Shown here: positions 1-46,654 of the stretch, piece by piece
How positions within the stretch are numbered: the stretch's first letter is position 1
How the letters are laid out: each line of letters begins with the position of its first letter
Source: an uncultured Pseudomonadota bacterium
GTDB lineage: Bacteria > Myxococcota_A > Polyangia > Nannocystales > Nannocystaceae
NCBI GenBank assembly: GCA_913061055.1
Contig: CAJXVA010000013.1
Span: 1 to 47,282, forward strand
Length of the DNA: 47,282 nt
Direction of reading: 5' to 3'
The notes under the pieces: generated by a model
Told to the model about the DNA's origin: nothing
Seen by the model: the letters and a program-made list of their open reading frames with translations, nothing else
Databases searched by the model: none
Made by a program: the position numbers and the translations under genes

Positions 1-50
1 TACGAGATGTAGAGAGGTCTCGTGGGCTCGGAGATGTGTATAAGAGACAG
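1..50. other. Illumina Nextera i7 adapter (non-genomic)
   Basis: Bases 32-50 are the Tn5 mosaic end AGATGTGTATAAGAGACAG. Bases 17-50 match the complete Nextera read-2 transposase adapter. Bases 1-8 (tacgagat) are the tail of the P7 primer, and bases 9-16 (gtagagag) sit exactly where the i7 index belongs; they match Nextera index N707 from memory. This is library sequence left at a contig end, so genomic sequence starts at 51 and any reading frame starting inside 1-50 is artificial. Confidence 0.97.
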
Positions 51-356
51 CGACTCGCCGGCGGCGGCGAGTTCTTTGCGGCACGAAAACCGGTGGTCGG
101 CGCGGCGAAGGTCGCCGGGTTCTACGTCAAGATCTCCGCCGGCGAGTCGGCCGTCCCCACGATCGAGATGCGCACACTCGGAGGGGTGCCGACGCTGGTC
201 GTGCGGCGCCCACAGGCCCACGGCAATCATGCTCCGGCGGCCTGCATTCAGGTCGAGCTGAACGAGGCCGGCCAGATTGCGCGCATCTACTCCGTCCTGG
301 CGACGGCGAAGGTTCGGGACATGCTCACTGCCCCAGGGCGGTTTGGATCCCCGTGA
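51..356 (+). CDS. ECF RNA polymerase sigma factor, C-terminal SnoaL-like part (5' truncated)
   Basis: About 101 codons of the 3' end of a gene cut by the contig end. The visible protein has the pattern of the NTF2/SnoaL-like tail of ECF sigma factors of the ECF41/SigJ kind: an alternating segment around PVVGAAKVAGFYV, a middle part resembling the 'gvPtlVv' strand, and a terminal strand ending RIYSVLATAKVRD, comparable to the 'I..VrNPDKL' end of those proteins. Sigma regions 2 and 4 are outside the window. In known ECF41 proteins this tail modulates sigma activity without a separate anti-sigma factor. The gene overlaps the 3' end of the minus-strand neighbour by 32 bp. An upstream in-frame ATG lies inside the adapter and is not a start. 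Confidence 0.65.
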   Translation, partial: RLAGGGEFFAARKPVVGAAKVAGFYVKISAGESAVPTIEMRTLGGVPTLVVRRPQAHGNHAPAACIQVELNEAGQIARIYSVLATAKVRDMLTAPGRFGSP

Positions 357-1263
357 TCAGGTCGTCGTCGGACGCGAACAGCTCGTCGACTTCGTCCTGC
401 TCGAAGAACCAATCACCGGGGCGACGGAACATCATCGGGTCGCGTTCCAGCGCGAGCTCGAGCCGCTCGGCTAGCTTGCGGACCGACGCACCCTCCACCA
501 GCTCGATCTGCTCGGCCGCGACAAGCGTCTCGATGAAGGCCACGAACGGGTCCTTCTGTGCCGGCGATCCTGAGTCGTCTTCGTCCTCGAAGTCGTCATC
601 TTCGTCGCCCAGGCCTGCAATCGCGGCGAACAGGCGAGAGGCGACGGCGTCGGAGGTCTTCTTTTCGCCGGTGCTCGCCTTTGCGGGCTTCTTGGTGGCG
701 CCTGCGCCACCAAACAGGGCGCGTAGGTCCGGAAGTGCAGCATCGTCCATGGCGTCGCCGGGAAGGGAGAGTGCTTCGGGGAACGGTGCCCCGGCAGGCG
801 TGCGTGCAGCGTCGGTCAGGTGGGGCATCGACGGCCACCGAGGCTCGGGAAGCTTGTCTTCCTTCGCGAGCACCAGAACGTACTGCGCGCCGATGCTCTC
901 TTCGCAATCCGGGAACACTTCGTACAGCGCACCCCAGTAGGACCCGTCGTCGACGGCCCACGTGCCTTGCGAGTCACCGAGCTTCGTGCCCAGGTTCACC
1001 GGTCCGGCGACGTCGAGCGGGAATGCGAACGCGGAGTGCAACACGTCGGCCACCGTCGGTAGGTCGTCCTCGGCGACGAGGCGGACCGAGAACGTGCCCT
1101 TTTCGCCGAGCTCGATGCCAAACGCTCGCGCATCGGCGAGGGCTTTCGATGGGTCTGCGCCGGCGTGATCGCCGACGTACACCACGATGCGTCCCTCGGA
1201 CGCCTTGCACTCAAGCGTGGCCAAAGCACAGCGAGCGTGGTGCGAGGGGGGCAGCGCCGTCAA
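325..1263 (-). CDS. hypothetical acidic protein
   Basis: About 312 residues, function not recognised. The N-terminal half (about 25-150) looks like a compact alpha/beta domain with strands such as GRIVVYVGD, FSVRLVAED and AQYVLVLAKED. A low-complexity linker follows, with Lys/Thr and then a run of acidic residues around 225-240. The C-terminal segment is helical and ends with a short acidic part (DEVDELFASDDD). There is no signal peptide, membrane segment or cysteine motif, so it is probably cytoplasmic. The frame opens with TTG at 1263; GTG codons near 1190 are alternative starts, but codon usage looks coding from close to 1263. It overlaps the sigma-factor gene tail to tail. Confidence 0.7.
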   Translation of the reverse strand: MTALPPSHHARCALATLECKASEGRIVVYVGDHAGADPSKALADARAFGIELGEKGTFSVRLVAEDDLPTVADVLHSAFAFPLDVAGPVNLGTKLGDSQGTWAVDDGSYWGALYEVFPDCEESIGAQYVLVLAKEDKLPEPRWPSMPHLTDAARTPAGAPFPEALSLPGDAMDDAALPDLRALFGGAGATKKPAKASTGEKKTSDAVASRLFAAIAGLGDEDDDFEDEDDSGSPAQKDPFVAFIETLVAAEQIELVEGASVRKLAERLELALERDPMMFRRPGDWFFEQDEVDELFASDDDLITGIQTALGQ

Positions 1264-1312
1264 CCCCTGGCGCTCACCGAATCGGCGAAATCGCGTGAGG
1301 TTTCGGGTTCGC

Positions 1313-2047
1313 TCAGTCGTTCCCGGTCACGGTCAGGCTCCAACTCGAGCCGACCGTACATTCGTCCGCTTTGGGGAAGATCTCCACCGCGACGACCGCG
1401 TCATCGTCCGCATTGTTGGCAACCGCGCCCTCGCCCCAGTCGAAGCGTACCGAGTCGGCACCCGTTGTTCGGGACTCCGCCTCGAGCCCGCCACAGCCAT
1501 TGGCATCCCCCGGATCTCCGAGATATGCGCGAATGTCCCAGTCCCCCCCCGTGCTGGTGAGGTCGAGCGTGACGCTCATCGCAGAGCCGAGAATGCCGCT
1601 GTCGTTTTCGCTGACCTCGACCTGCAGCCAGATGGGCTCGGTCCCGGTTTCGCTGACCGAGGGAACGGTGGTGTCTCCCGACACGCCCCCCAGCGTTGGC
1701 GCACCGTTGCAGGTCGTCGGGAAGTCGCAGGGGAAGGTTTCGACGCTGGTGTCCGAGTCCGATGAGGTGTCGTCGCCGGACGATTCCTGCCGGCCGCCGG
1801 AGGTCGAGCCGGTCGACCCGTCGCTCTCCTCGTCGTCGGTGGTGGTGGAGTCGTCGGTGGTGGTGGTGGTGTCGTCTGGAGGGTTGATGCCGGTGGTGAA
1901 TGGGCCCTCGGACGTGCTGTCCGCGTCGTCATCGGTCGCAGGCGGTGGACCCGTCGTGATCGCGGGCCCGGAGGGGTCCGCTGACGTCGCGCATCCGATC
2001 ACCAGCGCGCATGCGCCTGCGCAGCCGCTCCACACCCGCCAAGACAC
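1313..2047 (-). CDS. predicted lipoprotein with Thr/Ser/Asp-rich linker
   Basis: About 244 residues starting at GTG. A short hydrophobic signal ends in the lipobox VIGC (Cys about 19), so it should be a lipid-anchored surface or periplasmic protein. Residues about 25-100 are a low-complexity linker of Thr, Ser, Asp and Gly, a spacer common in Nannocystales lipoproteins. The C-terminal domain (about 105-244) has a beta-sandwich-like pattern, with strands such as IWLQVEVSE, MSVTLDLTS and WDIRAYLGD and a cysteine pair. It resembles small secreted beta domains in general, but I recognise no family. Function unknown. Confidence 0.75.
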   Translation of the reverse strand: MSWRVWSGCAGACALVIGCATSADPSGPAITTGPPPATDDDADSTSEGPFTTGINPPDDTTTTTDDSTTTDDEESDGSTGSTSGGRQESSGDDTSSDSDTSVETFPCDFPTTCNGAPTLGGVSGDTTVPSVSETGTEPIWLQVEVSENDSGILGSAMSVTLDLTSTGGDWDIRAYLGDPGDANGCGGLEAESRTTGADSVRFDWGEGAVANNADDDAVVAVEIFPKADECTVGSSWSLTVTGND

Positions 2048-2080
2048 GCCCCGAGTCTACCAAGCCCGGCTCTTGCAGCG

Positions 2081-2452
2081 TCATCCTTCGCCCAGTTGCG
2101 CCTTGAGGCTGCCGTCCGCTATCGCTTTCTCCAGATCGGTGAAGCCTCCGAGGAGGGCGCCGCGGACGAAGACCTGTGGAAACGTGGGCCATCCGCTCCA
2201 CATCTTGATCGCGAGCCGCGGCTTCCACTGCGACATGTAGCTGCCGTACTCGAGGTAGGTGAACGGGATGTCGGCCTGCTTGAGTGCAGCGCGAGCCTTG
2301 CGAACGAAGGGGTTCTGCGACATCCCGACGACCACCAACGCATCGCCCTCAACCGCCTTGGCGACCTCGTCCACGACCTCCCGGTGGAAGCCGGCCACCT
2401 TCGTTGCGGTTCGTTCCGTGTACGCCGAGTCCGAGAGCAGAGGCCGTTGCAT
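2081..2452 (-). CDS. glutaredoxin-like protein lacking active-site cysteines
   Basis: 123 residues with a glutaredoxin/thioredoxin-like fold. After an N-terminal helix (10-37) comes strand ALVVVGMS, then the position of the usual CPYC/CGFS motif, which here reads N47-P48-F49-V50. The second half is well conserved for glutaredoxins: the cis-proline region WPTFPQVFV (Pro92) and the GG-F-D-L glutathione-binding loop (GGFTDL). With no cysteine at the redox site it cannot be a normal thiol oxidoreductase. It may bind glutathione or a cluster partner, or be a structural relative of monothiol glutaredoxins. No signal peptide is seen, so it is probably cytoplasmic. Confidence 0.8.
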   Translation of the reverse strand: MQRPLLSDSAYTERTATKVAGFHREVVDEVAKAVEGDALVVVGMSQNPFVRKARAALKQADIPFTYLEYGSYMSQWKPRLAIKMWSGWPTFPQVFVRGALLGGFTDLEKAIADGSLKAQLGEG

Positions 2453-2499
2453 GGCGTGGGCTTAGCAGGTTTGACTCGGCCCTCCACCTGCGCGGTTGC

Positions 2500-3135
2500 T
2501 CAGGTCTTCTTCCTGCGGGTCGTCTTCTTCGCGACCTTCTTCGTGGCGGCCCGCGGTGGGTGGGGCGTGTCCCCGCGTTCGAGCATGTCGACGTATTTCT
2601 TCACCCGCCGGGCCCGCGTCGAGTCCGTCGCCGCGTCCCAGACTCCGAACAGAATCGAGTATCGGTTCGCTCCATCGAGCGCTTCGAACGCCGCGCGCGC
2701 CATCGGTGACGCAGCAAGGGCTTCTTTCAACGCCGGGGGAACCGTCATCTTGGAGGCCGATGGGTACGCTCGCTCCCATCGTCCGTCTTCACGTGCGGCT
2801 TCGACCTGCGCGAGCCCGGGAGCGTGCATGCCCCCGCGTTCGATCAAGCCCTCCGCGATCTCCCGGTTGATGAGAGACCACTTGCTGCGCGCTCGCCGAG
2901 GCGTGAATCGCAGCAGGTAGTACGTCTCGTCGTACCCATTCTTCAGGCCATCGATCCAACCCCAGGCGATCGCTTCCTCGCGGGCCTCGACATACGTCGT
3001 CGTCGTCACGCCCGAGTTCTTCTTGGCGAACATCACCCACAGCCCCTCCTCACGCTTGTGATGTTTCCGGAGCCAGACGCGGAACTTGGCCTGCGTCGCG
3101 AAGGCTTCCATCGGAAGACCTTTGTGTTCCGCCAT
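2500..3135 (-). CDS. YdeI/OmpD-associated family protein
   Basis: 211 residues. The pattern is that of the YdeI/OmpD-associated (OmdA) family: an N-terminal FRVWLRKHHKREEGLWV block, then EAIAWGWIDGLKNGYDETYYLLRF with the family's characteristic WGWIDG, then FTPRRARSKWSLINRE, and a C-terminal helical domain with PPALKEALAASP and FEALDGANRYSILF. The last 20 residues are a Lys/Arg tail rich in Thr and Ala. Members are small, probably cytosolic proteins linked in enterobacteria to peptide resistance; the biochemical role is not known. ATG at 3135 is the first in-frame start, and an in-frame Met8 is an alternative. Confidence 0.85.
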   Translation of the reverse strand: MAEHKGLPMEAFATQAKFRVWLRKHHKREEGLWVMFAKKNSGVTTTTYVEAREEAIAWGWIDGLKNGYDETYYLLRFTPRRARSKWSLINREIAEGLIERGGMHAPGLAQVEAAREDGRWERAYPSASKMTVPPALKEALAASPMARAAFEALDGANRYSILFGVWDAATDSTRARRVKKYVDMLERGDTPHPPRAATKKVAKKTTRRKKT

Positions 3136-3323
3136 CGGGGAATCGTAGGCGGACGCGCTGCTGGTGGCTATCGGCGCGTGGCGTTATCGTGCCCCGGCGA
3201 TGATCACAACGGTCGCACTGCTGGTGAGCATGGTCGCGCCGGTCCGGGTTTCGATGCCCGTGCGCAGCGACTGTCCGTCGGCCGCCCGCGCCACGGCCGA
3301 ACCCGCCCGCACCCAATCAGCCG

Positions 3324-3734
3324 GTGGCGGCGTCCATCGAAACGGCCCCCGTGGTTTCCGCACCGGCTCCGGCGGCACCCTCTGGCCCCGAGGACGGGCG
3401 GCGCCAAGCCAGCACGGCAGCCCTCGCAGCTGCATCGACGCTCGCCGCCGAAGCGAAGCTCGTACGTGCGATCAAGGGCGCCGTGTCCACGGATCCGCGG
3501 GCGGCTCTAACACTCGCCGAACGGTATGCGGTGCGCTTTCCGCAGGGGGTGCTGTCCGCAGAGGCCGCCGCACTTCGTGTCGATGCGTTGTGCCGACTCG
3601 GACGGGAGCCGGCAGCGAAACTGGCCGCGCAGTCCCTACCCGCCACGCATCCGTCGGCCACCGTCGCAACGCAAGGGTGCCCACGAGAAAAAACGACGAA
3701 CCCCGCCTCCCCCGGAGAAGCAGTCGGTCGGTGA
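3324..3734 (+). pseudogene. fragment of a helical-repeat protein of the sigma-factor-associated type
   Basis: This frame is open from 3228 to 3734 but has no good start or signal sequence. The visible part has a Pro/Ala linker and then helices with TPR-like pattern: STLAAEAKLVRAIKGAV, PRAALTLAERYAVRFPQG, and EAAALRVDALCRLGR followed by a HPS motif. That order is typical of the C-terminal part of membrane-anchored proteins encoded beside ECF sigma factors in Nannocystales (from memory). A possible N-terminal membrane segment (MITTVALLVSMVAP, ATG at 3200) lies in a different frame, which suggests a frameshift between about 3230 and 3320. This is either a decayed gene or a sequencing error. Confidence 0.45.
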
Positions 3735-4176
3735 CGATCCGATCGCCCTCGACATCGAGGTCGAGGTCGAGGGATTCGACATCGACAGTGCGGATGCTCC
3801 CTGCACCGTGGTCGAGGACGGATTCGACTGCGACGTCGATGGTACGCCCACACCCGTGTCGGTCGAACTCGGGGGTACGGGGCCGCTGCCGTGGGCGGAC
3901 GGAGATTGTGTGCTCGTCAAGGTTTCGAAGGGCTCGACCACGATCATGAACATTGTCGAGGTCGAGGATCCACAGGGACGACTGCTCGGGTTGTTGATCG
4001 GGGGCTTCCGGGTTTCGAGTGGACCCTCGGCTCAAGACGAAGCGAGTAGAACGCGTGCTAAGGAACAGGGTTTGGCGTATCCGTTTTCGACGAACCGCGT
4101 CGTGACACGGACCGCCGCGGGGGCTACCCCCGGTCGAGTTGGCCGTCGTAGGCACCGAGGGAGAGCTGAGGCGTAG
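3727..4176 (+). pseudogene. possible gene remnant, acidic beta-type domain
   Basis: This frame reads like protein from about 3733 to about 4005: repeated Glu/Val strands (LDIEVEVEGFDI), a cysteine pair, then PWADGDCVLVKVSKG and a GRLLGLLIGG strand. The codon pattern then becomes irregular up to the stop at 4176. No convincing start codon exists; GTG at 3808 is the only candidate inside the coding-like part. The frame is shifted relative to the preceding fragment, which stops at 3734. I read it as a second remnant of the same damaged locus. I recognise no family. Confidence 0.35.
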
Positions 4177-4349
4177 AGAATCGACAACGCGGCGCTCGGT
4201 GTGCTCTACCCTCGAAGTGGATGCGCTGATGCGCTGGCGGATGCTGTAGCCCAGCCTAGCTCGGGCGAAGGGCGGTCGTGCTGCTCAATGGGCAGGTTTG
4301 CCGCACGAAAGGAGGTGTACCGGACTTGCGGCCCCCCTGGGGCTGGAGC
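4177..4349. other. intergenic stretch, no gene recognised
   Basis: Between the remnant region and the 3' end of the large lipoprotein I see no coding-like frame. It contains a purine-rich Shine-Dalgarno-like string (aaaggaggtg, about 4310-4319), but no start codon at a useful distance opens a convincing protein. Confidence 0.4.
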
Positions 4350-6605
4350 CTACGGTGTGGTGCTCAATATGAAGACGTCTGGATGGTCGGAGTCCGGTTC
4401 GTTCGCCGCGGTGACGGTCGATCCTTGCGCAGACAACGTTCTATGGAACCGACCGGCAACAACCACATTACCCGCAGGTGACGCGGCCACACTCTCTCCG
4501 AACGCGCCCCCGATCGCGTCCGTGCCGGAGCTGCTGGCCTCGTAGAGCTCTGCCCACAGCCCCGCCCCATCAACAGGGCGATATCCAGCCAATACGAGGT
4601 GTTGTCCTGCTGTGCTCCCGCTGGTGAGAGTTTGACCCGCGAAGTATGCGTTCGTGCTTTCGCCGAACCCCGTGTTGAACATCGCGGTCACCACCAGCTC
4701 CCCTGCCGCATTCATGGTCAACCCCCCAGCCCCGTCGCGCCATGTCCCGCCCCCATGACGCACCCAAAGCGGTGCACCAGAGCCGCCGTAGGCGAGGACG
4801 ATGGTGTCGTCAAAGCCCCATGTGGTGAGAGTCGAGCCTCCGACGTTGGCTGTCCCGTCGACGGTCCCCGTGACGTAGGCGACGCCGGAGTCGTCAAGGA
4901 AGGCTCCGCCTGCCCCATCCTGCTGGGTGCCTCCGAACGAGTCGGACCACAGAGAGTCGCCGGCAGCGTCGAGCTTCAGGACAAAACCATCGTTCGCTCC
5001 AGCCGAGGTGAGCGGCCCGGCGCCGTAATCGACCGTTCCGCCGAACGAGCCCACGACCAAAACCTCACCGGCCGCGTTGATATCAACCCCGCGGGGGGAG
5101 TCGTAGAATGGACCCTCAAGCTGACGGGAAAACCGGTACGTGCCGGCGCTGTCGAGGCTAAGGACGAACGCGTCTGAGAAGCCGAAGGGCATGGTCCCGG
5201 GAAGCGCCCCCCCGCCGAAGTCGACGCCCAGTCCCCCTATCCGGCCCACAGCCACGAGTTCACCGGTCGCGTTCGCGGCCAGAGCAGAGCCGCCCAGCGT
5301 CGCATCTGGCGCCCCGTAGCGATTTGTCCATCGGGGCGATCCGTCGTGATGGTAGGCGGCCACGAGTAGGTCCCGTCGACCCGTGACAGGAGTTTCGCCC
5401 ATGCCAGTGTCGAGCGGGCCCGTCGAACCGAGTACAACGTACACGCGGTCTGCGGAGTCTATGGCTACACCGTAGGCCGTATCGTCACCGGCGCCCGAGA
5501 ACAACCTGGACCACCGGTAGTTACCGTCCGGGTCGTAGCCGACGATGAAGCCGTCTTCTCGTTGAGTCGGCTCAGGCCCCTGCCCGAGATCGATGGTCGG
5601 GCCCAGCGTCCTGCCAGAGACATAGACGTTGCCCTGCGTATCAATCGCCACAGTAGTGCTGCTGAAGACGCTATCGTGCTCGGTTCCGCCGAGGCGTTTG
5701 AGCCACCCCGTTGCCGACACGCAGGTTCCGGTGATGTCGATCGGCCGAGCCAAGACGTTGTTCACCTCATCCCGTTCGGAGACGGCGTCGAACTCGTCAA
5801 CGACTGCCAGCAAATACTGAGGGCCTGGGGTCGCTGTCCAAGGGATCTGGTTGGCGTCGCTCGAGACCGAGACTGTGGAGCCTCCGGCCATGCCGCCCGA
5901 GATCTGATCGCGACCGCCCAGTAGCAGGCTGTCGCCGGTCCCCCAGAACGGGTCCTCTGAGAGATACCAGGCGACTCCGAACGTTTCAGAGATCGCGTCG
6001 CTGCTATCGTTGGTGACGTCCAACGAAACGAGTGACCCAATGTCCTGCCCGACGCACGCCTGCGCGGGCTTCATGATCTCGGTGATGACGAGGTCCACCG
6101 GATCGCAGCTCCCGCACCCCAGGGACTCGACTTCAGAAACGCATATCGAATCCCACTGGTTTCCGCAGCAATAGGGATCTGCGTCGCACACGCAAGACGC
6201 TGTGGAGGAATCCTCGCACCCTGGCAGTGGCGAGGCTGCGCAGCATGCGACTTCTTCGGCGCAGGTGCCACATCCGAGCGAATCCACCTCGGAGACGCAC
6301 AGGGAGTCCCATTCGACATCGCAGCAGTAGGAATCAGAAACGCAGACGCACTCTGCAACGACGAGGTCCGAGCACGTGTCGGGCCCGGTCGCACAACAAT
6401 CCGCCGTTGTTGCGAACGGGTCACGGGGTACAGCCAAGTCCACACCGTCGGGCATTCGATCGACACGCTCGCCCGCATCGTCCGCGAGTTCCACGTCTTG
6501 TGCCGGCTCAATGTCGGCGCCGTCGGTCGCGCTCGATGGGTTTGCATCGCAGGCGCACGCCAGCAGGAGAAGCGGAGCCGGAGTGAGTCGGGAGAGCGTG
6601 TTCAT
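4350..6605 (-). CDS. lipoprotein with tandem Cys-rich repeats, CARDB-like domain and beta-propeller repeats
   Basis: 751 residues. A signal peptide with lipobox LLAC (Cys17; Cys19 also possible) predicts a lipid-anchored surface protein. Residues about 68-165 hold two tandem cysteine-rich units of about 46 residues, each starting CC and ending YCC..WDS.CVSEV.SLGCG.C, a pattern frequent in Nannocystales secreted proteins. A CARDB-like beta domain follows (about 167-290, starting VDLVITEIM). The C-terminal 460 residues contain SBBP/YCF48-like propeller repeats with recurring units such as 'DTQGNVYVSGRT' and 'NAAGEVLVVGSF'. No catalytic motif is visible; adhesion or carbohydrate/surface binding is a guess. 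Its ATG lies directly beside the start of the divergent plus-strand frame. Confidence 0.85.
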   Translation of the reverse strand: MNTLSRLTPAPLLLLACACDANPSSATDGADIEPAQDVELADDAGERVDRMPDGVDLAVPRDPFATTADCCATGPDTCSDLVVAECVCVSDSYCCDVEWDSLCVSEVDSLGCGTCAEEVACCAASPLPGCEDSSTASCVCDADPYCCGNQWDSICVSEVESLGCGSCDPVDLVITEIMKPAQACVGQDIGSLVSLDVTNDSSDAISETFGVAWYLSEDPFWGTGDSLLLGGRDQISGGMAGGSTVSVSSDANQIPWTATPGPQYLLAVVDEFDAVSERDEVNNVLARPIDITGTCVSATGWLKRLGGTEHDSVFSSTTVAIDTQGNVYVSGRTLGPTIDLGQGPEPTQREDGFIVGYDPDGNYRWSRLFSGAGDDTAYGVAIDSADRVYVVLGSTGPLDTGMGETPVTGRRDLLVAAYHHDGSPRWTNRYGAPDATLGGSALAANATGELVAVGRIGGLGVDFGGGALPGTMPFGFSDAFVLSLDSAGTYRFSRQLEGPFYDSPRGVDINAAGEVLVVGSFGGTVDYGAGPLTSAGANDGFVLKLDAAGDSLWSDSFGGTQQDGAGGAFLDDSGVAYVTGTVDGTANVGGSTLTTWGFDDTIVLAYGGSGAPLWVRHGGGTWRDGAGGLTMNAAGELVVTAMFNTGFGESTNAYFAGQTLTSGSTAGQHLVLAGYRPVDGAGLWAELYEASSSGTDAIGGAFGESVAASPAGNVVVAGRFHRTLSAQGSTVTAANEPDSDHPDVFILSTTP

Positions 6606-7076
6606 GTGGACACCGGGGCAGTTGCCGGTGGCGTTGGACCGTTCCCAGATACTTTCACTACGAGGTCGAGGGCTTTGGACGGCGATCTCTGTGCGCGGTT
6701 AACGCCTCGCGGCGTGCGCTTCAGCGCGCCCGAGGGGGAGACCCTGGTCGCGCACTTCGGCTGGCCCGTGAGCGCATCTGTTCCGGACACGGTGGCCGCG
6801 TGGTTCAACCTCTCTATCGAGACGTTTGATGCAAACTGCACGCCGGTCGAGCCGGAGGTGGGCGGGATGTTCGTGCAAGACCCCTGTCCCGCCATCGACA
6901 CTCGGCTTGGGGTGGTCATGACGTGGGACGGGGTCGACGTCTCGATTGGCCCCGGCGAGCTCGTCGAGGAACAGGGAGCGGTCTACGCCGCCGATGCGTC
7001 GCGGTTGGAATTCGTGGAAGAGAGCTGCGGCGCGACGGTGCGCGCGTGGGTTTCGATGGTCCGTCTCCGCGACTGA
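6606..7076 (+). CDS. hypothetical protein, start uncertain
   Basis: About 156 residues if GTG at 6606 is used; TTG at 6684 is an alternative. Coding character is clear from about 6700: strands GVRFSAPEGETLVAHFGW, TVAAWFNLSIETFD and LGVVMTWDGVDVSIG, plus three spaced cysteines. No signal peptide or lipobox is visible, although the compact Cys-containing beta domain looks secreted. The gene may therefore have lost its 5' end, which would have lain where the divergent lipoprotein gene now starts. I recognise no family. A perfect 16-bp palindrome follows the stop. Confidence 0.5.
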   Translation: MDTGAVAGGVGPFPDTFTTRSRALDGDLCARLTPRGVRFSAPEGETLVAHFGWPVSASVPDTVAAWFNLSIETFDANCTPVEPEVGGMFVQDPCPAIDTRLGVVMTWDGVDVSIGPGELVEEQGAVYAADASRLEFVEESCGATVRAWVSMVRLRD

Positions 7077-7094
7077 CTTGGCTTCGGCCTCGCT

Positions 7095-7110
7095 GGACCC
7101 GTACGGGTCC
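7095..7110 (+). terminator. 16-bp perfect palindrome after the 6606-7076 gene
   Basis: The sequence ggaccc-gtac-gggtcc is perfectly self-complementary and begins 18 bases after the stop codon. It could form a 6-bp GC-rich hairpin with a 4-base loop, in keeping with a terminator, but no T-run follows. A dyad binding site is the alternative. Confidence 0.35.
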
Positions 7111-7221
7111 GAGTGGTGCGAGGGGCGGTGCCGCCGCGTGGCGAGGGGGCCACCGCGAGGTCCGTTACAAGCGTGTGACGGTTCGAGGGAACCTTGGCAG
7201 TACGCTGGGTGTCGGAGTCTC

Positions 7222-8040
7222 ATGAACCGCGCCGTCATTGCCACGCTCATCCTCCTCGGGGGCTGCAATCACGCCGCAGATGCGAGCCCGTCGAGCCTTT
7301 CGCAGTCCGCCCCCCCGTTGGTCGTGGCGCCCGCGTCCGCGCCTCGCATCCGGGTGCTGACGTTCAACGTCAACTTTGGGGTGGCCGACGCGCAGGCGAA
7401 CCTCGAGGCGATCGAGTCCCTCGACGCCGACGTTGTGTTGCTGCAGGAGACGACGGCGGAGTCAGAGGATCGGTTCCGCGACACGTTTTCAGAGCAGTAT
7501 CCCAACATTCTGTGGCAGGACTGCTGCAACGCCGGCGGGTTGGGCGTGCTCTCGAAGTATCCGATCGCGTGGGACGAGTACTTGGAGCCCGACGCGGGAT
7601 GGTTTCCGGGGTGGCTCGTCGCGGTCGAGACGCCGATCGGCGAGGTGCAGTTTCTCGATGTGCATCTGAGGCCGCCGGTCAGTGACTCGGGAAGCTGGGT
7701 GACCGGGCAGTTCTCGACGCGCAAGGTTCGGGCAAAGGAGATCGAGGGCTTTTGGAGAGCCGTCGAGGCGGAGGTGCCGGTGATCGTCGCGGGCGACTTC
7801 AACGAAGGGGCGAACGGTCGCGCAGTGGAGTTCCTCGCGGACAAGGGCATGCGCAGCGCGTTGGCGCAGGTCAAACCCAAGGCGGACACCTGGCATTGGC
7901 CGCTGAAGGTGGGGGAGTTGTCCTCGATGCTGGACCACATCGTCTACGACGCGCGCCTGTCGTTGCTGCGTGCAGATGTGCATGCGCTGGGGCGCTCCGA
8001 TCACTATCCGGTGGTCGCTGAGTTCACGCTCGCCGACTGA
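7222..8040 (+). CDS. endonuclease/exonuclease/phosphatase-family lipoprotein
   Basis: 272 residues from ATG 7222. The signal peptide ends in lipobox LGGC (Cys15), so the enzyme should be anchored outside the cytoplasm. The EEP-fold metal and catalytic motifs are present in order: LTFNVN (Asn), LLQETT (Glu metal ligand), VAGDFNEG (Asp/Asn pair) and SDHYPVVAEF (terminal Asp-His). The family hydrolyses phosphodiester or phosphomonoester bonds in nucleic acids, sphingomyelin or inositides; the substrate here cannot be told. The M28 peptidase gene follows after 13 bp on the same strand, so the two are probably co-transcribed and may act together in extracellular degradation. Confidence 0.88.
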   Translation: MNRAVIATLILLGGCNHAADASPSSLSQSAPPLVVAPASAPRIRVLTFNVNFGVADAQANLEAIESLDADVVLLQETTAESEDRFRDTFSEQYPNILWQDCCNAGGLGVLSKYPIAWDEYLEPDAGWFPGWLVAVETPIGEVQFLDVHLRPPVSDSGSWVTGQFSTRKVRAKEIEGFWRAVEAEVPVIVAGDFNEGANGRAVEFLADKGMRSALAQVKPKADTWHWPLKVGELSSMLDHIVYDARLSLLRADVHALGRSDHYPVVAEFTLAD

Positions 8041-8053
8041 TACGCTCGCCGCC

Positions 8054-9457
8054 ATGCGAGCCGCTGCGGTCCTCCTGGTTCTGGGCGTCGGTTGTGCGCG
8101 ATCTTTCGAGAGCTTGCCTCCGCCGCCGGCCCCGCTCGAGGCGCCCGTGACGGAGGCTACCCCGACGGACACCACGGTGGTGTCGCAGGGGCCGGCGGAG
8201 GTCGACACGATGTTGGCGGCGATCGATGCGCCCAGGATGGCCGAGAGCATCGAGATGCTGGTGGGGTTCGGGACGCGGCACACGCTGTCGGCAACGGACG
8301 ATCCTGCGCGGGGCATCGGGGCGGCTCGTGAAGGCATCGCAGCGCGGTTGCGCACCTCCTCTCGACTCGAGGTCACCATGGACCGCCACCGCATCGAGGC
8401 CGACGGACGGCGGGTGGATGTGCCGACCGATGTGGTGAACGTGGTCGCAACCCTCCGGGGGGCGATGCCCGAAGCTGCGGGCCGGCGTTACTACGTGATT
8501 GGGCACTACGATTCGCGGGTGACGGATCCGATGAACCGCACCGCCGACGCGCCGGGCGCAAACGACGATGCGTCGGGGACCGCGGTGGTGCTGGAGCTGG
8601 CTCGGGTGATGTCGCAGCACGAGTACGACGCCACGATTGTGTTCATGGCGACCGCCGGCGAGGAGCAGGGGTTGCTGGGCGCACGGGCTCATGCGCAGGC
8701 TGCGAAGGAGAAGGGCATCGATGTGCGTGCCGTGTTGTCCAACGACATCGTCGGGGACCCCAGTGGTCCCAGTGGTGCGAACCATGACGGCGAGGTTCGG
8801 GTGTTTTCGATCGCGCTGGAGAATCCGTTGAGCGAGACGGACCTGGCGCAGCTGCGGACGCTTGCGGGCACGCATGATGGCGCGAGTCGGCAGCTTGCGC
8901 GTTTCGTGCATTCGGTGGGGGTGAAGCACGCGCTTCCGGTGCAGGCGAAGCTGGTGTTTCGGCGGGACAGGTTCCTGCGCGGCGGAGACCACACGGCGTT
9001 CAACGAGGCTGGGTTTGCGGCGGTGCGATTCACCGAGGTCGAGGAAAACTATGACCGGCAGCACCAGGATGTACGGACAGAGGCCGGGCACTCATACGGC
9101 GACCTGGCCGAGCATGTGGACGCGGAGTACTTGGCTGGCGTCGCTCGGCTCAACGCTGCTGCGTTGGCTCATCTGGCGAACGCACCTTCGATGCCCGGGA
9201 ATGCGCGAATCGACGCGACCGGCCTGAGTCACGACACGACGCTGCGCTGGGATGCGAGTCCGGAACCGGATGTTGCTGGGTATGAACTCGTTTGGCGCGA
9301 GACGACCGCGGCGGTGTGGACCGGCGTCAAGGATGTGGGCGTGGCGCTCGAGGTGACCGTGCCGGTGTCCAAAGACAATTTGTTCTTCGGGGTGCGGGCC
9401 TATGACCGCGAGGGGTACCGCAGCCCGGTCCGGTTCATGAGCGTGGAACGAAGATAG
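8054..9457 (+). CDS. M28-family metallopeptidase lipoprotein
   Basis: 467 residues from ATG 8054, with lipobox GVGC (Cys14). The M28 zinc site is readable: HYDS (His151), GANDDASG (bridging Asp171), AGEEQGLLGA (catalytic Glu203/ligand Glu204), NDIVGD (Asp231) and the last ligand in GGDHTAFNE (about 311-314). All expected ligands are present. After the catalytic domain a fibronectin type III-like domain occupies about 375-467, including the segment DATGLSHDTTLRWD. M28 enzymes are aminopeptidases or carboxypeptidases using two zinc ions. It sits 13 bp downstream of the EEP lipoprotein, consistent with an operon. It faces the kinase gene tail to tail. Confidence 0.92.
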   Translation: MRAAAVLLVLGVGCARSFESLPPPPAPLEAPVTEATPTDTTVVSQGPAEVDTMLAAIDAPRMAESIEMLVGFGTRHTLSATDDPARGIGAAREGIAARLRTSSRLEVTMDRHRIEADGRRVDVPTDVVNVVATLRGAMPEAAGRRYYVIGHYDSRVTDPMNRTADAPGANDDASGTAVVLELARVMSQHEYDATIVFMATAGEEQGLLGARAHAQAAKEKGIDVRAVLSNDIVGDPSGPSGANHDGEVRVFSIALENPLSETDLAQLRTLAGTHDGASRQLARFVHSVGVKHALPVQAKLVFRRDRFLRGGDHTAFNEAGFAAVRFTEVEENYDRQHQDVRTEAGHSYGDLAEHVDAEYLAGVARLNAAALAHLANAPSMPGNARIDATGLSHDTTLRWDASPEPDVAGYELVWRETTAAVWTGVKDVGVALEVTVPVSKDNLFFGVRAYDREGYRSPVRFMSVERR

Positions 9458-43889: not shown

Positions 43890-45638
43890 ATGCGAGCCGA
43901 ACGAGTGATCTGGAGTGGAGCCTTGCTCCTGCTGGGGGCGTGTCGCGATGCAGATGAGCCTCCGGAGGCTGACAACGGCGCGGTGACTGGGGCTGACGTC
44001 GAGCTTCCCGAGCCCGTCGACTGCGAGGCCCTGGAGGTTGCGGATCGGCTGCGGTGGACGGGAGGCGGAGCGGCGAGTCCGGGATTGCGATCCGTCGCCG
44101 TTTACGGCGCGCGCGGCTTCACGTGCAGCGACGAGGGCGGTCTGGCGTCGTGGGATCTGACCGACGATGTGCCGGTGCTGATCGGGGAGTCCGATCAAGC
44201 GTGCGTGGCGGTCGCGACCGACGGAACCTGGCTCGCCGTCGCCCGCGACTCCGAGGTGCAGCTGCGGACTGTGGAGGACGCCGCGGTCGTGGGCACCTGG
44301 GCCACGACTTCGGCCGTCGAATCCATGACGCTGATCGACGGACACCTGTGGGTCGCGGCCGGACGCGGCGGTTGGGCCGAGCTCGATGCCGACAACGCGT
44401 TGCAGGAAGTTCGGCGGTTCTCCGACGCGCAATCCGACGCGCGGGCGGTCACCACGACGCAGGGGTTCGTGTACGTCGCAGATGCCCGGGCGGGTTTGCG
44501 AGCGTTCGAGCTGGCGGACGCAGGGGCGACCCCGCTGGGAACTTTGGCGGTCGACCCCGTCCTCGACGTCGTCGCGCACGATGATGGGCTCGCGGTCGCG
44601 ACCCTCGGCGGCGTTGCCTGGGTCGAACTCTCGAACCCTGCCGCTCCGGCGCTCCGCGGCCAGGTGGAGACGCCGGGTTCGGCGTTGGCGGTCGAGGTTG
44701 TCGAGGGCCAGCTCGTCGCGGCTGACTTCAAAGACATCGCGGTCGTCTCGGGGGAAGAGGAGCCTCGGCTGCTCGACGTCGAGCCGCTGATCGGGGATGA
44801 CCTGCTCGACCGAACCCGCGCACTGTCCGTGGACCCGGTCACCGGCCGTCTGTTCGTGGCGCAGTGGAATACGTTGCAGGCCTTCGACACCGCTTGCGAC
44901 GGCGCCTCGCCATCTCTATGGCCCGATCGTCGCACCGTGGACTTTCGAGTCGTGTCCCCAGGGCGGACCCGAAGTCTCGCCGTCTCGTTGCGCAACCAGG
45001 GCGACGCGGACCTGTCGGTCACCGAGGTTCGAACCTCGATGGTCGGCGTGACCAACGACTTCGAACCGCTGAGCATCGCGCCGGGCAACGTCGTCGCGTT
45101 TGAGGTGACGTTCGAATCTCCGGATGAGGAGCCCTACGAAGGGGCCCTGGAGATTGTGAGCGACGATCCGGACCAGCCGGTGTTCGTGCTGCCGATGTCG
45201 GCCAACGTTCGCGGGATCCGGGTCGGCGAGCCTGTCGTGCCGTTCCGCAACGTGGACATGCTCGGGCGGATCTGGGAGCCGGATGGTGCCGCCGACAAGG
45301 TCTTGCTCCTGGCCTACTTCGCGGATTGGTGAACGGCCTGCAACCGGGAGTTTCCCGGTTTCGAAGCCACGCTGTGGCAGGGATATCAAGACGACGGGCT
45401 CGTCATGCTGGCGCAGAGCGACCAGAGCGTCGAGCGCATCGTCGCATTCGGTGTCGAGTACGGCTCCACGTTTCCCTTGGTCCGCGACGCCACCACATAC
45501 GAGATGTACGACGACCCGGGGCCCGGAAACTTCGCGCTCGAGGTGATCGTCGATCGCGAGGGCATCGTCCGCTTTGCGCAGCACGGGTCGAGCACCGAAG
45601 AGCTCGAGGCCGCCATCGTTCCTCTGCTCTCGGAGTGA
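43890..45638 (+). CDS. selenoprotein lipoprotein: beta-propeller, ASH-like and thioredoxin-fold domain with U-x-x-C
   Basis: 582 residues from ATG 43890 if the in-frame TGA at 45330-45332 is read as selenocysteine (residue 481). Lipobox LGAC (Cys18) gives a lipid anchor. Residues about 50-330 are a beta-propeller of LVIVD type (SVAVYGARGFTCSD, GGVAWVELSNPAAPALRG). About 346-445 is an ASH/choice-of-anchor D-like domain (VVSPGRTRSLAVSLRNQGDADL). From about 455 comes a thioredoxin/redoxin fold: KVLLLAYFADW-U-TAC-NREFPGFEATLWQG, then VEYGSTFPLVRD and NFALEVIVDREGIVRFAQHG. ADWCxxC is a common thioredoxin-like active site, so U replaces its first Cys. A SECIS-like hairpin follows the TGA. A standard annotation would wrongly end at 45332 and might call a second gene from ATG 45405. 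Confidence 0.87.
45330..45332 (+). other. selenocysteine codon (in-frame TGA)
   Basis: This TGA falls between FADW and TAC in a thioredoxin-like active site, exactly at the first cysteine position. The same frame stays open for 101 further codons that encode the rest of the fold and end at TGA 45636-45638. Confidence 0.85.
45342..45360 (+). promoter_or_regulatory. bacterial SECIS element candidate
   Basis: Arms aaccggga (45342-45349) and tcccggtt (45353-45360) pair perfectly over 8 bp around the loop gtt. The loop begins 17 nt after the TGA and its first base is G. Known bacterial SECIS elements have a small apical loop of 3-14 nt with a G in its first two positions, 16-37 nt after the UGA, so all criteria are met. 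SelB would bind it to deliver selenocysteyl-tRNA. Confidence 0.8.
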
Positions 45639-45730: not shown

Positions 45731-46654
45731 ATGAAACGAACCGCCCTGTTCCTCGCAGCATTGGCCCTTGCGGCCTGTGACAGCGAACCCGAAGACCCAT
45801 CCGAAGCCCGCCTCGCGGAGCTCGATGCCGAAGACGACCTCGAAGACCTCGCGGAACCTCCGCACCGCAAGCACGGCAAGCGCCACGGCTCCCATGACGG
45901 ACCCAGCGCCGAAATCTGCGAGGCCATCGAGTGCACCGAGGCTCAGCAAGAGCAGGTGAAGTCCATCTTCGCCCGGCCCGAGCACGGTGAGCGCCCCGAG
46001 CGGCCCGACCTGTCTGCCGCGCACGCCGAGCTCGCCAAGGCGTTCGCGACCCCAGACTTCAATGAGGCCGACCTCCTGGCGTGGGCCGAACAGCTCCCGG
46101 ACCGGTCCGAGCGTGGGTCCCACCGCGTCGACGCGATGTCCGAGCTCCACACCATTCTCACCCCCGAGCAGCGGACGGCGCTGGCAGCCAAGGTCTCGGC
46201 CGGGGAAGTCTTTGCAGGTCGTCGCCACGGAAAACACGAGCGGCCCGAAGGCAGCGACCACGCGGAGCGTCGGATCAAGCACTTCTGCGAGTCGTTGGAC
46301 TGCACGGAGGCCCAGCGAACGGAACTGACCGCGGTCTTTGCGAAGAAGCACGAATCACGACCCGATCCGCAGGCTCGCCAAGACGCGATCGCAGAAGCGT
46401 TCAAAGGCGACACATTCGACGCCGAAGGGCTGCGTGAGTCGTGCGAACACGACCCCGGCGACGACGCGGGAACCCTCGCCGAGGTGCACACCGTGCTCAC
46501 CCCCGAGCAACGCACCGTCCTCGCCGAGCGCATTGCCAAGCACGGCCCCCGGGCGCTGATGGGCAAGGGTGGAAAACACGGTCGTCATGGCAAACGCCGG
46601 GGTCGACATGGTGGCCGACGTGGCGGCCGGGACGGCGGACCCGAGTTCGGCTGA
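45731..46654 (+). CDS. His-rich lipoprotein with two LTxxQ (Spy/CpxP-like) units
   Basis: 307 residues from ATG 45731, with a GGAGAG ribosome binding site upstream. Lipobox LAAC (about Cys16). The protein contains a duplicated helical unit: each copy has an IxC..EAQ helix (ICEAIECTEAQQEQV and FCESLDCTEAQRTEL) and then ELHTILTPEQRTAL or EVHTVLTPEQRTVL, the LTxxQ signature of Spy/CpxP/ZraP periplasmic chaperones and metal sensors. His/Lys-rich stretches lie near the N-terminus (HRKHGKRHGSHDG) and the C-terminus (GKHGRHGKRRGRHGG), which suggests metal binding. It starts 92 bp after the selenoprotein stop on the same strand; shared envelope or redox stress roles are a guess. Confidence 0.83.
   Translation: MKRTALFLAALALAACDSEPEDPSEARLAELDAEDDLEDLAEPPHRKHGKRHGSHDGPSAEICEAIECTEAQQEQVKSIFARPEHGERPERPDLSAAHAELAKAFATPDFNEADLLAWAEQLPDRSERGSHRVDAMSELHTILTPEQRTALAAKVSAGEVFAGRRHGKHERPEGSDHAERRIKHFCESLDCTEAQRTELTAVFAKKHESRPDPQARQDAIAEAFKGDTFDAEGLRESCEHDPGDDAGTLAEVHTVLTPEQRTVLAERIAKHGPRALMGKGGKHGRHGKRRGRHGGRRGGRDGGPEFG

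What the first reader, a model, noticed from the sequence alone, without database searches (positions are those of the whole stretch)
43890..45638. Undescribed-looking selenoprotein: in-frame TGA at the first position of a thioredoxin-like active site
The lipoprotein reading frame stops at TGA 45330-45332 right after FADW. The same frame continues with T-A-C and 98 more codons that complete a redoxin fold. Replacing TGA by a cysteine codon would give ADWCTAC, a standard thioredoxin-like site. The stop therefore falls exactly where Sec is expected, and the protein makes structural sense only when read through. Naive gene calling would yield a propeller lipoprotein lacking its last domain plus a 77-residue orphan.
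Basis: partly seen in the sequence, partly recalled or inferred. Interest (0 to 1): 0.93.

Follow-up and report, generated by a model that had tools for sequence, protein, structure and literature searches.

The report
Selenocysteine lipoprotein hidden behind a stop
A myxobacterial gene carries an internal "stop" codon that is likely read as the rare amino acid selenocysteine; the same codon, followed by a conserved RNA hairpin, recurs in relatives from many genomes, so databases hold these proteins cut short and without their predicted redox domain.

Summary
The frame 43890-45638 is broken only by TGA 45330-45332. Read through, it gives a 582-residue predicted lipoprotein: beta-propeller, Ig-like domain, and ResA/TlpA-like redoxin with U481-T-A-C484. 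Selenocysteine is strongly supported. In the 34 distinct full-length homologs whose site I could read, the aligned codon is TGA in 20 and TGC in 14, nothing else. A hairpin 17 nt behind the TGA, with an invariant GUU loop, pairs in 93.9% of cells over 21 TGA genes, with 19 compensatory cells (0 of 500 shuffles as high); in 13 TGC homologs it pairs in 14.3%. The genome has selA, selB and a selD that itself carries a TGA. tRNA-Sec was not found in this fragmented assembly, but the same-genus genome has one. UxxC redoxins are a known selenoprotein kind. The propeller-Ig-redoxin fusion is absent from the 2026 catalogue table and has no NCBIfam model: a new variant. The enzymatic role, probably extracytoplasmic thiol-disulfide exchange, is inferred. 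The window's clade has Ala where ResA has cis-proline, so its chemistry may differ.

The parts
43890..45638 (+). Whole gene: predicted selenoprotein of 582 residues plus stop
   Evidence: homologs
43890..43943 (+). Predicted signal peptide with lipobox LGAC, Cys18 (rule recalled, not computed by a tool)
   Evidence: sequence
44037..44900 (+). Beta-propeller, residues about 50-337, WD40-like
44925..45182 (+). Ig-like domain (HYDIN/DUF1573), residues about 346-431
   Evidence: PF22544 28.1 bits and PF07610 26.5 bits, both above cut-off
45225..45635 (+). Redoxin domain, residues about 446-582
   Evidence: PF00578 33.9 bits when read through; ResA-like; model
45330..45332 (+). In-frame TGA, predicted Sec481
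45339..45341 (+). Cys484, predicted resolving cysteine of the UxxC site; invariant in the 15-row alignment
45343..45359 (+). Predicted bacterial SECIS hairpin: 7-bp stem 45343-45349 / 45353-45359, loop GTT 45350-45352
   Evidence: control
45405..45638 (+). 77-residue orphan ORF that a gene caller would report; part of the read-through protein
   Evidence: orphan homologs P0025 and P0026
45534..45536 (+). Ala549 at the position of ResA's cis-proline

Best explanation
The gene at 43890-45638 is a likely selenoprotein gene: its in-frame TGA at 45330-45332, followed by a conserved hairpin, is predicted to be translated as selenocysteine, giving a predicted lipoprotein of propeller, Ig-like and redoxin domains that would act as a thiol-disulfide oxidoreductase through its U-T-A-C site. 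Shown by sequence: the TGA and its alternation with TGC at one alignment column; the covarying hairpin present with TGA and missing with TGC; coding constraint behind the TGA; selA, selB and selD in the genome. Inferred: SelB and tRNA-Sec use the hairpin to insert Sec at this UGA; the protein is exported and anchored at Cys18; the Sec481 selenolate attacks a substrate disulfide (or another oxidised sulfur or a peroxide) and Cys484 resolves the bond; propeller and Ig domain hold the substrate or a partner near the redoxin domain.
For: Site: 20 TGA, 14 TGC, no other codon in 34 distinct full-length homologs read; 22 of 22 further family sites TGA in named genomes, partly the same genes. Hairpin: 93.9% of 147 cells paired, 19 cells changed on both sides, covariation 0.463 against 0.121 in shuffles, 0 of 500 as high; control on 13 TGC homologs 14.3% paired. 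It fits the bSECIS model of PMC13188914 section 5. Machinery: selA, selB, selD above cut-offs; SelD has its own in-frame TGA in AAG-U-ASK. selA above cut-off in 16 of 17 genomes with the TGA form. Coding constraint. Orphan and truncated database entries. Redox role: ResA model matches 15 of 15 members; 9 of 10 PDB sequence matches of the downstream part are ResA. Model with pLDDT 86.5 places residue 481 just before the active-site helix 482-502.
Against: tRNA-Sec not found in G000, G011 or G021. Contigs of the sel genes differ from the window's and the bin is 89% complete with 2.8% contamination, so co-membership rests on binning. Single-sequence folding of the window's 48 nt is unremarkable (z -1.34). 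L131 (Plesiocystis) pairs at only 4 of 7 positions, and 2 of 21 hairpins (L129, L131) miss the model's -7.5 kcal/mol in my 19-nt fold. One of five covariation measures is weaker: pairs with change on both sides, 29 of 500 shuffles as high. G011 has the TGA form without a selA hit (71% complete). Ala549 replaces ResA's cis-proline, which weakens the thiol-disulfide role. The window protein reaches no NCBIfam cut-off. No biochemical data.
Confidence: 0.85

Rival explanations
1. It is a selenoprotein, but the redoxin domain works as a peroxidase or sulfoxide reductase, or uses the selenolate as a metal ligand, rather than as a thiol-disulfide oxidoreductase.
For: Best Pfam family is AhpC-TSA. 6 of 15 members match a peroxiredoxin model (PRK13189), and 2 match the Pfam glutathione peroxidase family. 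The window clade has Ala at the cis-proline position, unlike 42 of 44 family members.
Against: Sec lies at the first position of U-x-x-C; the peroxiredoxin motif PxxxTxxU as given in PMC13188914 is not in the sequence. ResA model matches 15 of 15 members.
Confidence: 0.3
2. The TGA is a true stop, or a sequencing error, and the downstream frame is an untranslated remnant.
For: No reads at hand; database entries end here.
Against: Same codon in many genomes with TGC as the only alternative; purifying selection behind it; hairpin that covaries and is missing in Cys forms.
Confidence: 0.02
3. The TGA is read through with another residue (suppressor tRNA or reassigned TGA), not Sec.
For: Sec insertion itself was not observed; tRNA-Sec not found in this assembly.
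Against: The only alternative residue at the site is Cys; SECIS-like hairpin; sel genes; TGA is also used as the gene-end stop in 5 of 13 family genes read, the window's own among them.
Confidence: 0.03

Closest known systems
Prx-like thiol:disulfide oxidoreductase selenoproteins (PF00578, UxxC/UxxU) and Redoxin family selenoproteins (PF08534, UxxC), PMC13188914 Table 1
   Same: Pfam family, UxxC site, Sec at the first position
   Different: The table names no propeller or Ig domain; whether its members include such fusions was not checked sequence by sequence
DUF1573 domain-containing selenoprotein (PF07610, UGC), PMC13188914 Table 1
   Same: DUF1573/HYDIN-type Ig domain; this is the name databases give the truncated form (P0004)
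   Different: Motif UGC there; here Sec is in U-T-A-C of a separate C-terminal redoxin domain
ResA (Bacillus subtilis; PDB 1st9, 3c71 and others) and TlpA
   Same: Redoxin domain, x-x-C active site, sequence match of the downstream part
   Different: Sec for the first Cys; Ala549 for the cis-proline; fused to propeller and Ig domain; below the NCBIfam ResA cut-off (37.8 of 170 bits)
ResA-like WAxxUGC motif protein (NCBIfam NF041054)
   Same: Model of a ResA-like (seleno)protein; 4 of 15 members match weakly (best E 0.0027)
   Different: Motif UGC; window protein itself not matched

Membership tests
Bacterial selenoprotein gene | In-frame UGA with homologs carrying Cys at the same position | tested here: met
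   20 TGA, 14 TGC in 34 read
Bacterial selenoprotein gene | bSECIS: 3-9 nt loop, G in first two loop positions, 4-16 bp stem, 16-37 nt from UGA | tested here: met
   7 bp, loop GUU, 17 nt
Bacterial selenoprotein gene | SelA, SelB, SelD encoded in the genome | tested here: met
Bacterial selenoprotein gene | tRNA-Sec encoded in the genome | tested here: inconclusive
   Not found in the fragmented G000; present in same-genus G001
Bacterial selenoprotein gene | Selenium in the protein | not testable with these tools
   needs 75Se labelling or mass spectrometry
UxxC redoxin selenoproteins (PF00578/PF08534) | PF00578 domain above cut-off with Sec at the first position of UxxC | tested here: met
   33.9 bits against 26; U481-T-A-C484
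ResA (NCBIfam NF002854) | Score above curated cut-off | tested here: not met
   37.8 of 170 bits
ResA/TlpA | cis-proline opposite the active site | tested here: not met
   Ala549 in the window protein; Pro in 42 of 44 family members
Selenium peroxiredoxin (TxxU) | PxxxTxxU motif | tested here: not met
   Sequence reads AYFADWUTAC; motif as in PMC13188914
DUF1573 UGC selenoprotein | PF07610 domain | tested here: met
   26.5 bits against 26.1
DUF1573 UGC selenoprotein | Sec in a U-G-C motif | tested here: not met
   Sec is in UTAC, in the redoxin domain

The most novel reading that the evidence does not exclude
Polyangia carry a widespread but uncatalogued selenoprotein family, a propeller-Ig-redoxin enzyme outside the cytoplasm, in which Sec and Cys have been exchanged at least three times; the window's clade, which has lost the cis-proline next to its selenocysteine, has left thiol-disulfide exchange for another selenolate chemistry (peroxide, sulfoxide or metal) on substrates held by the propeller.
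Probability: 0.3. Interest if true: 0.72.

Novelty: new variant of a known kind. Interest (0 to 1): 0.62.

Why it matters
It would put a family of large, probably extracytoplasmic selenoproteins in myxobacteria, a group for which my literature searches listed no selenoproteome study, and shows that databases hold these proteins cut at the Sec codon, one of them named after its Ig-like domain. The family is a natural experiment: related genes carry Sec with a hairpin or Cys without it (G143 against G146, one genus), so the constraint that the hairpin puts on the protein behind the site, and the benefit of Sec, can be measured on matched pairs. Three named strains carry it, so it can be tested.

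Tried and rejected
Rfam scans of the window and of four G000 loci: no match at gathering score. tRNA-Sec in G000: the 8 hits were below cut-off, and the ARAGORN calls in those loci are Ser, Leu, Arg, Tyr, Gly, Thr; no tRNA on the selA/selB contig. First named-genome search with the window protein: 26 pattern matches, none a relative; the pattern across the TGA assumed Cys. First structure, whose alignment had almost no redoxin rows, left residues 432-582 under pLDDT 50 and is not used; the second, with homologs, resolved them. The Foldseek and VIA-align rows shown are filled by propellers and propeller proteins, so the redoxin fold was not tested by structure search; it rests on Pfam, NCBIfam and PDB sequence matches. 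Gene neighbours gave no partner that I could show to be conserved: in the window a Ser/Thr kinase upstream and an LTXXQ protein downstream; in G021 two redoxin proteins and a 647-aa protein. Literature listings (titles and abstract starts only) for selenoprotein or selenocysteine with myxobacteria, Nannocystis, Plesiocystis, Sorangium, Myxococc-, Enhygromyxa, Haliangium and Myxococcota, and selenoprotein + beta-propeller + bacteria + redoxin, showed no report of this family. None of the listed papers of those calls was opened; the library is open-access only.

Full report
OBSERVATION. The window is contig C13 of a 10.65 Mb genome in 913 contigs, 89% complete, 2.8% contaminated. That it is one of the Nannocystales (Polyangia, Myxococcota) is inferred from named relatives. 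Long open frames are cheap in this DNA, so openness alone is weak, and I tested the downstream part by homology.

DATABASE PICTURE. The joined protein finds 15 clusters (only the 7996 candidates sharing most words were scored). 13 of them, 49% to 99% identical, end exactly at the residue before the TGA; P0004 is named 'DUF1573 domain-containing protein [Nannocystales bacterium]'. A search with the redoxin part finds two proteins at E 1e-6 or better, P0025 and P0026, 78-80% identical orphans that begin behind the TGA. P0025 and the truncated P0009 lie on contigs of the same length, 31585 bases, which fits one gene called as two.

THE FAMILY. In its own genome the gene has two relatives in tandem on C278, each with a TGA at YFATF-U-PVC, and a Cys form on C549. 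I searched 29 genomes of the order with the protein and 317 of the class with the family profile, and read the aligned codon by script in the loci held. Among 34 distinct full-length matches (at least 488 aligned residues) it is TGA in 20 and TGC in 14, nothing else. A partial 21st TGA case (L140) also has a TAG elsewhere; a short TGC piece in G028 (L053, 159 residues) is not counted. Five further TGA matches (G021 C15 and C1087, G002 C53, G011 C1025, G053 C282) gave no locus and were not read. A named-genome scan gave 21 loci with 22 family sites, all TGA, among them Enhygromyxa salina SWB007, Plesiocystis pacifica SIR-1 and Paraliomyxa miuraensis SMH-27-4. Several are the same contigs as G loci, and the scan's peptide pattern overlaps the hairpin, so it leans towards Sec forms. 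On a quick tree of 44 distinct proteins (30 Sec, 14 Cys; Sec site and six following residues masked) Sec and Cys change at least three times, and starred branches force three. G143 (Sec) and G146 (Cys) belong to one genus; the G146 copy also has a TAG elsewhere in its frame.

SECIS. Behind the TGA a hairpin can form at positions 14-20 / 24-30, with the loop GUU invariant in 21 of 21. 93.9% of 147 cells pair, 19 cells change on both sides, 12 further pair types occur, and the covariation score is 0.463 against 0.121 in shuffles (each 0 of 500 as high); the fifth measure, pairs with a change on both sides, is 4 against 2.2 and is reached by 29 of 500. Every slid register is far worse on cells paired and covariation. 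RNAalifold independently gives the same stem without its top pair. For example, position 27, the third base of a mostly Pro codon, follows its partner at 17 (UA 14, AU 3, GC 2, CG 1, UG 1). In 13 distinct TGC homologs the same positions pair in 14.3% of cells, below every slid register: hairpin and TGA go together. Spacing, loop and stem meet the bSECIS model of PMC13188914 section 5 (read in full). Against: the window's own 48 nt fold no better than many shuffles (z -1.34), L131 (Plesiocystis) pairs at 4 of 7 positions, and L129 and L131 miss the model's -7.5 kcal/mol in my short fold.

MACHINERY. G000 has selA and selB on one contig and selD elsewhere, all above NCBI's cut-offs; SelD reads ...AAG-U-ASK with its own TGA. 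tRNA-Sec hits of at least 64 bits occur in 21 of the 29 genomes of the order, G001 of the same genus included, but not in G000, G011 or G021, all strongly fragmented; ARAGORN reads anticodon TCA in 9 of 9 loci checked. selA is above cut-off in 16 of 17 genomes with a TGA form read, the exception being G011 at 71% completeness. Of 13 genomes in which I read only the Cys form, 9 have selA, 1 has a fragment below cut-off, and 3 have none.

CODING CONSTRAINT. In 10 chosen pairs, identity behind the TGA (51-70%) equals or exceeds that of the 100 codons before it (39-64%), with dN/dS about 0.21-0.47 behind it; the gene-end stops of the 13 genes read vary among TGA, TAG and TAA.

NOVELTY. PMC13188914 (2026; abstract, section 5 and parts 1-2 of section 7 read) lists 119 families or subfamilies. 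UxxC redoxins of PF00578 and PF08534 and a DUF1573 UGC family are there; a propeller-Ig-redoxin fusion is not named. PMC9312934 was seen in passages only. None of the five NCBIfam hits to the window protein reaches its cut-off. I call it a new variant of a known kind.

Noticed in passing
L031 (G000:C549) TGA 2526; L039 (G001) TGA 674 minus; L040 (G026) TGA 3906: Beside each of the three Cys-form homologs of the order, on the opposite strand, lies a second short redoxin-like frame with an in-frame TGA at U-G-L-C or U-G-A-C and a different hairpin (GGUCU loop) behind it: probably another selenoprotein.
   Followed up: partly
L141 (G054:C650), TGA at 1140, minus strand: A further redoxin-like frame with TGA at SEW-U-PPC beside the family member of G054.
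   Followed up: no
L030 (G000:C59) about 2514-3443: SelD of the window's genome carries an in-frame TGA in AAG-U-ASK, so it is probably a selenoprotein itself.
   Followed up: partly
L029 (G000:C278) 1-3524 and L113 (G011:C252): Two Sec-form family members stand in tandem in both genomes.
   Followed up: partly
L163 (G021:C700) 3591-8487, minus strand: The closest homolog read lies in a run with two redoxin proteins and a 647-aa protein that looks to me like an outer-membrane barrel (Pfam gives only DUF6029 below cut-off).
   Followed up: partly
window 45731-46654: LTXXQ (CpxP/Spy-like) predicted lipoprotein directly behind the gene, same strand.
   Followed up: partly
L009, L010, L011 (G000): Two tRNA-Ser genes each with anticodons TGA and GGA on different contigs; the bin may mix strains.
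   Followed up: no
L156, L162: Sec-form homologs in MAGs labelled Ardenticatenales (Chloroflexota) and Klebsiella pneumoniae; mislabelled bins or transfer.
   Followed up: no
L061 (G027:C436): G027 has a second, higher-scoring selA (524.7 against 405.6 bits), perhaps contamination or a transferred copy.
   Followed up: no
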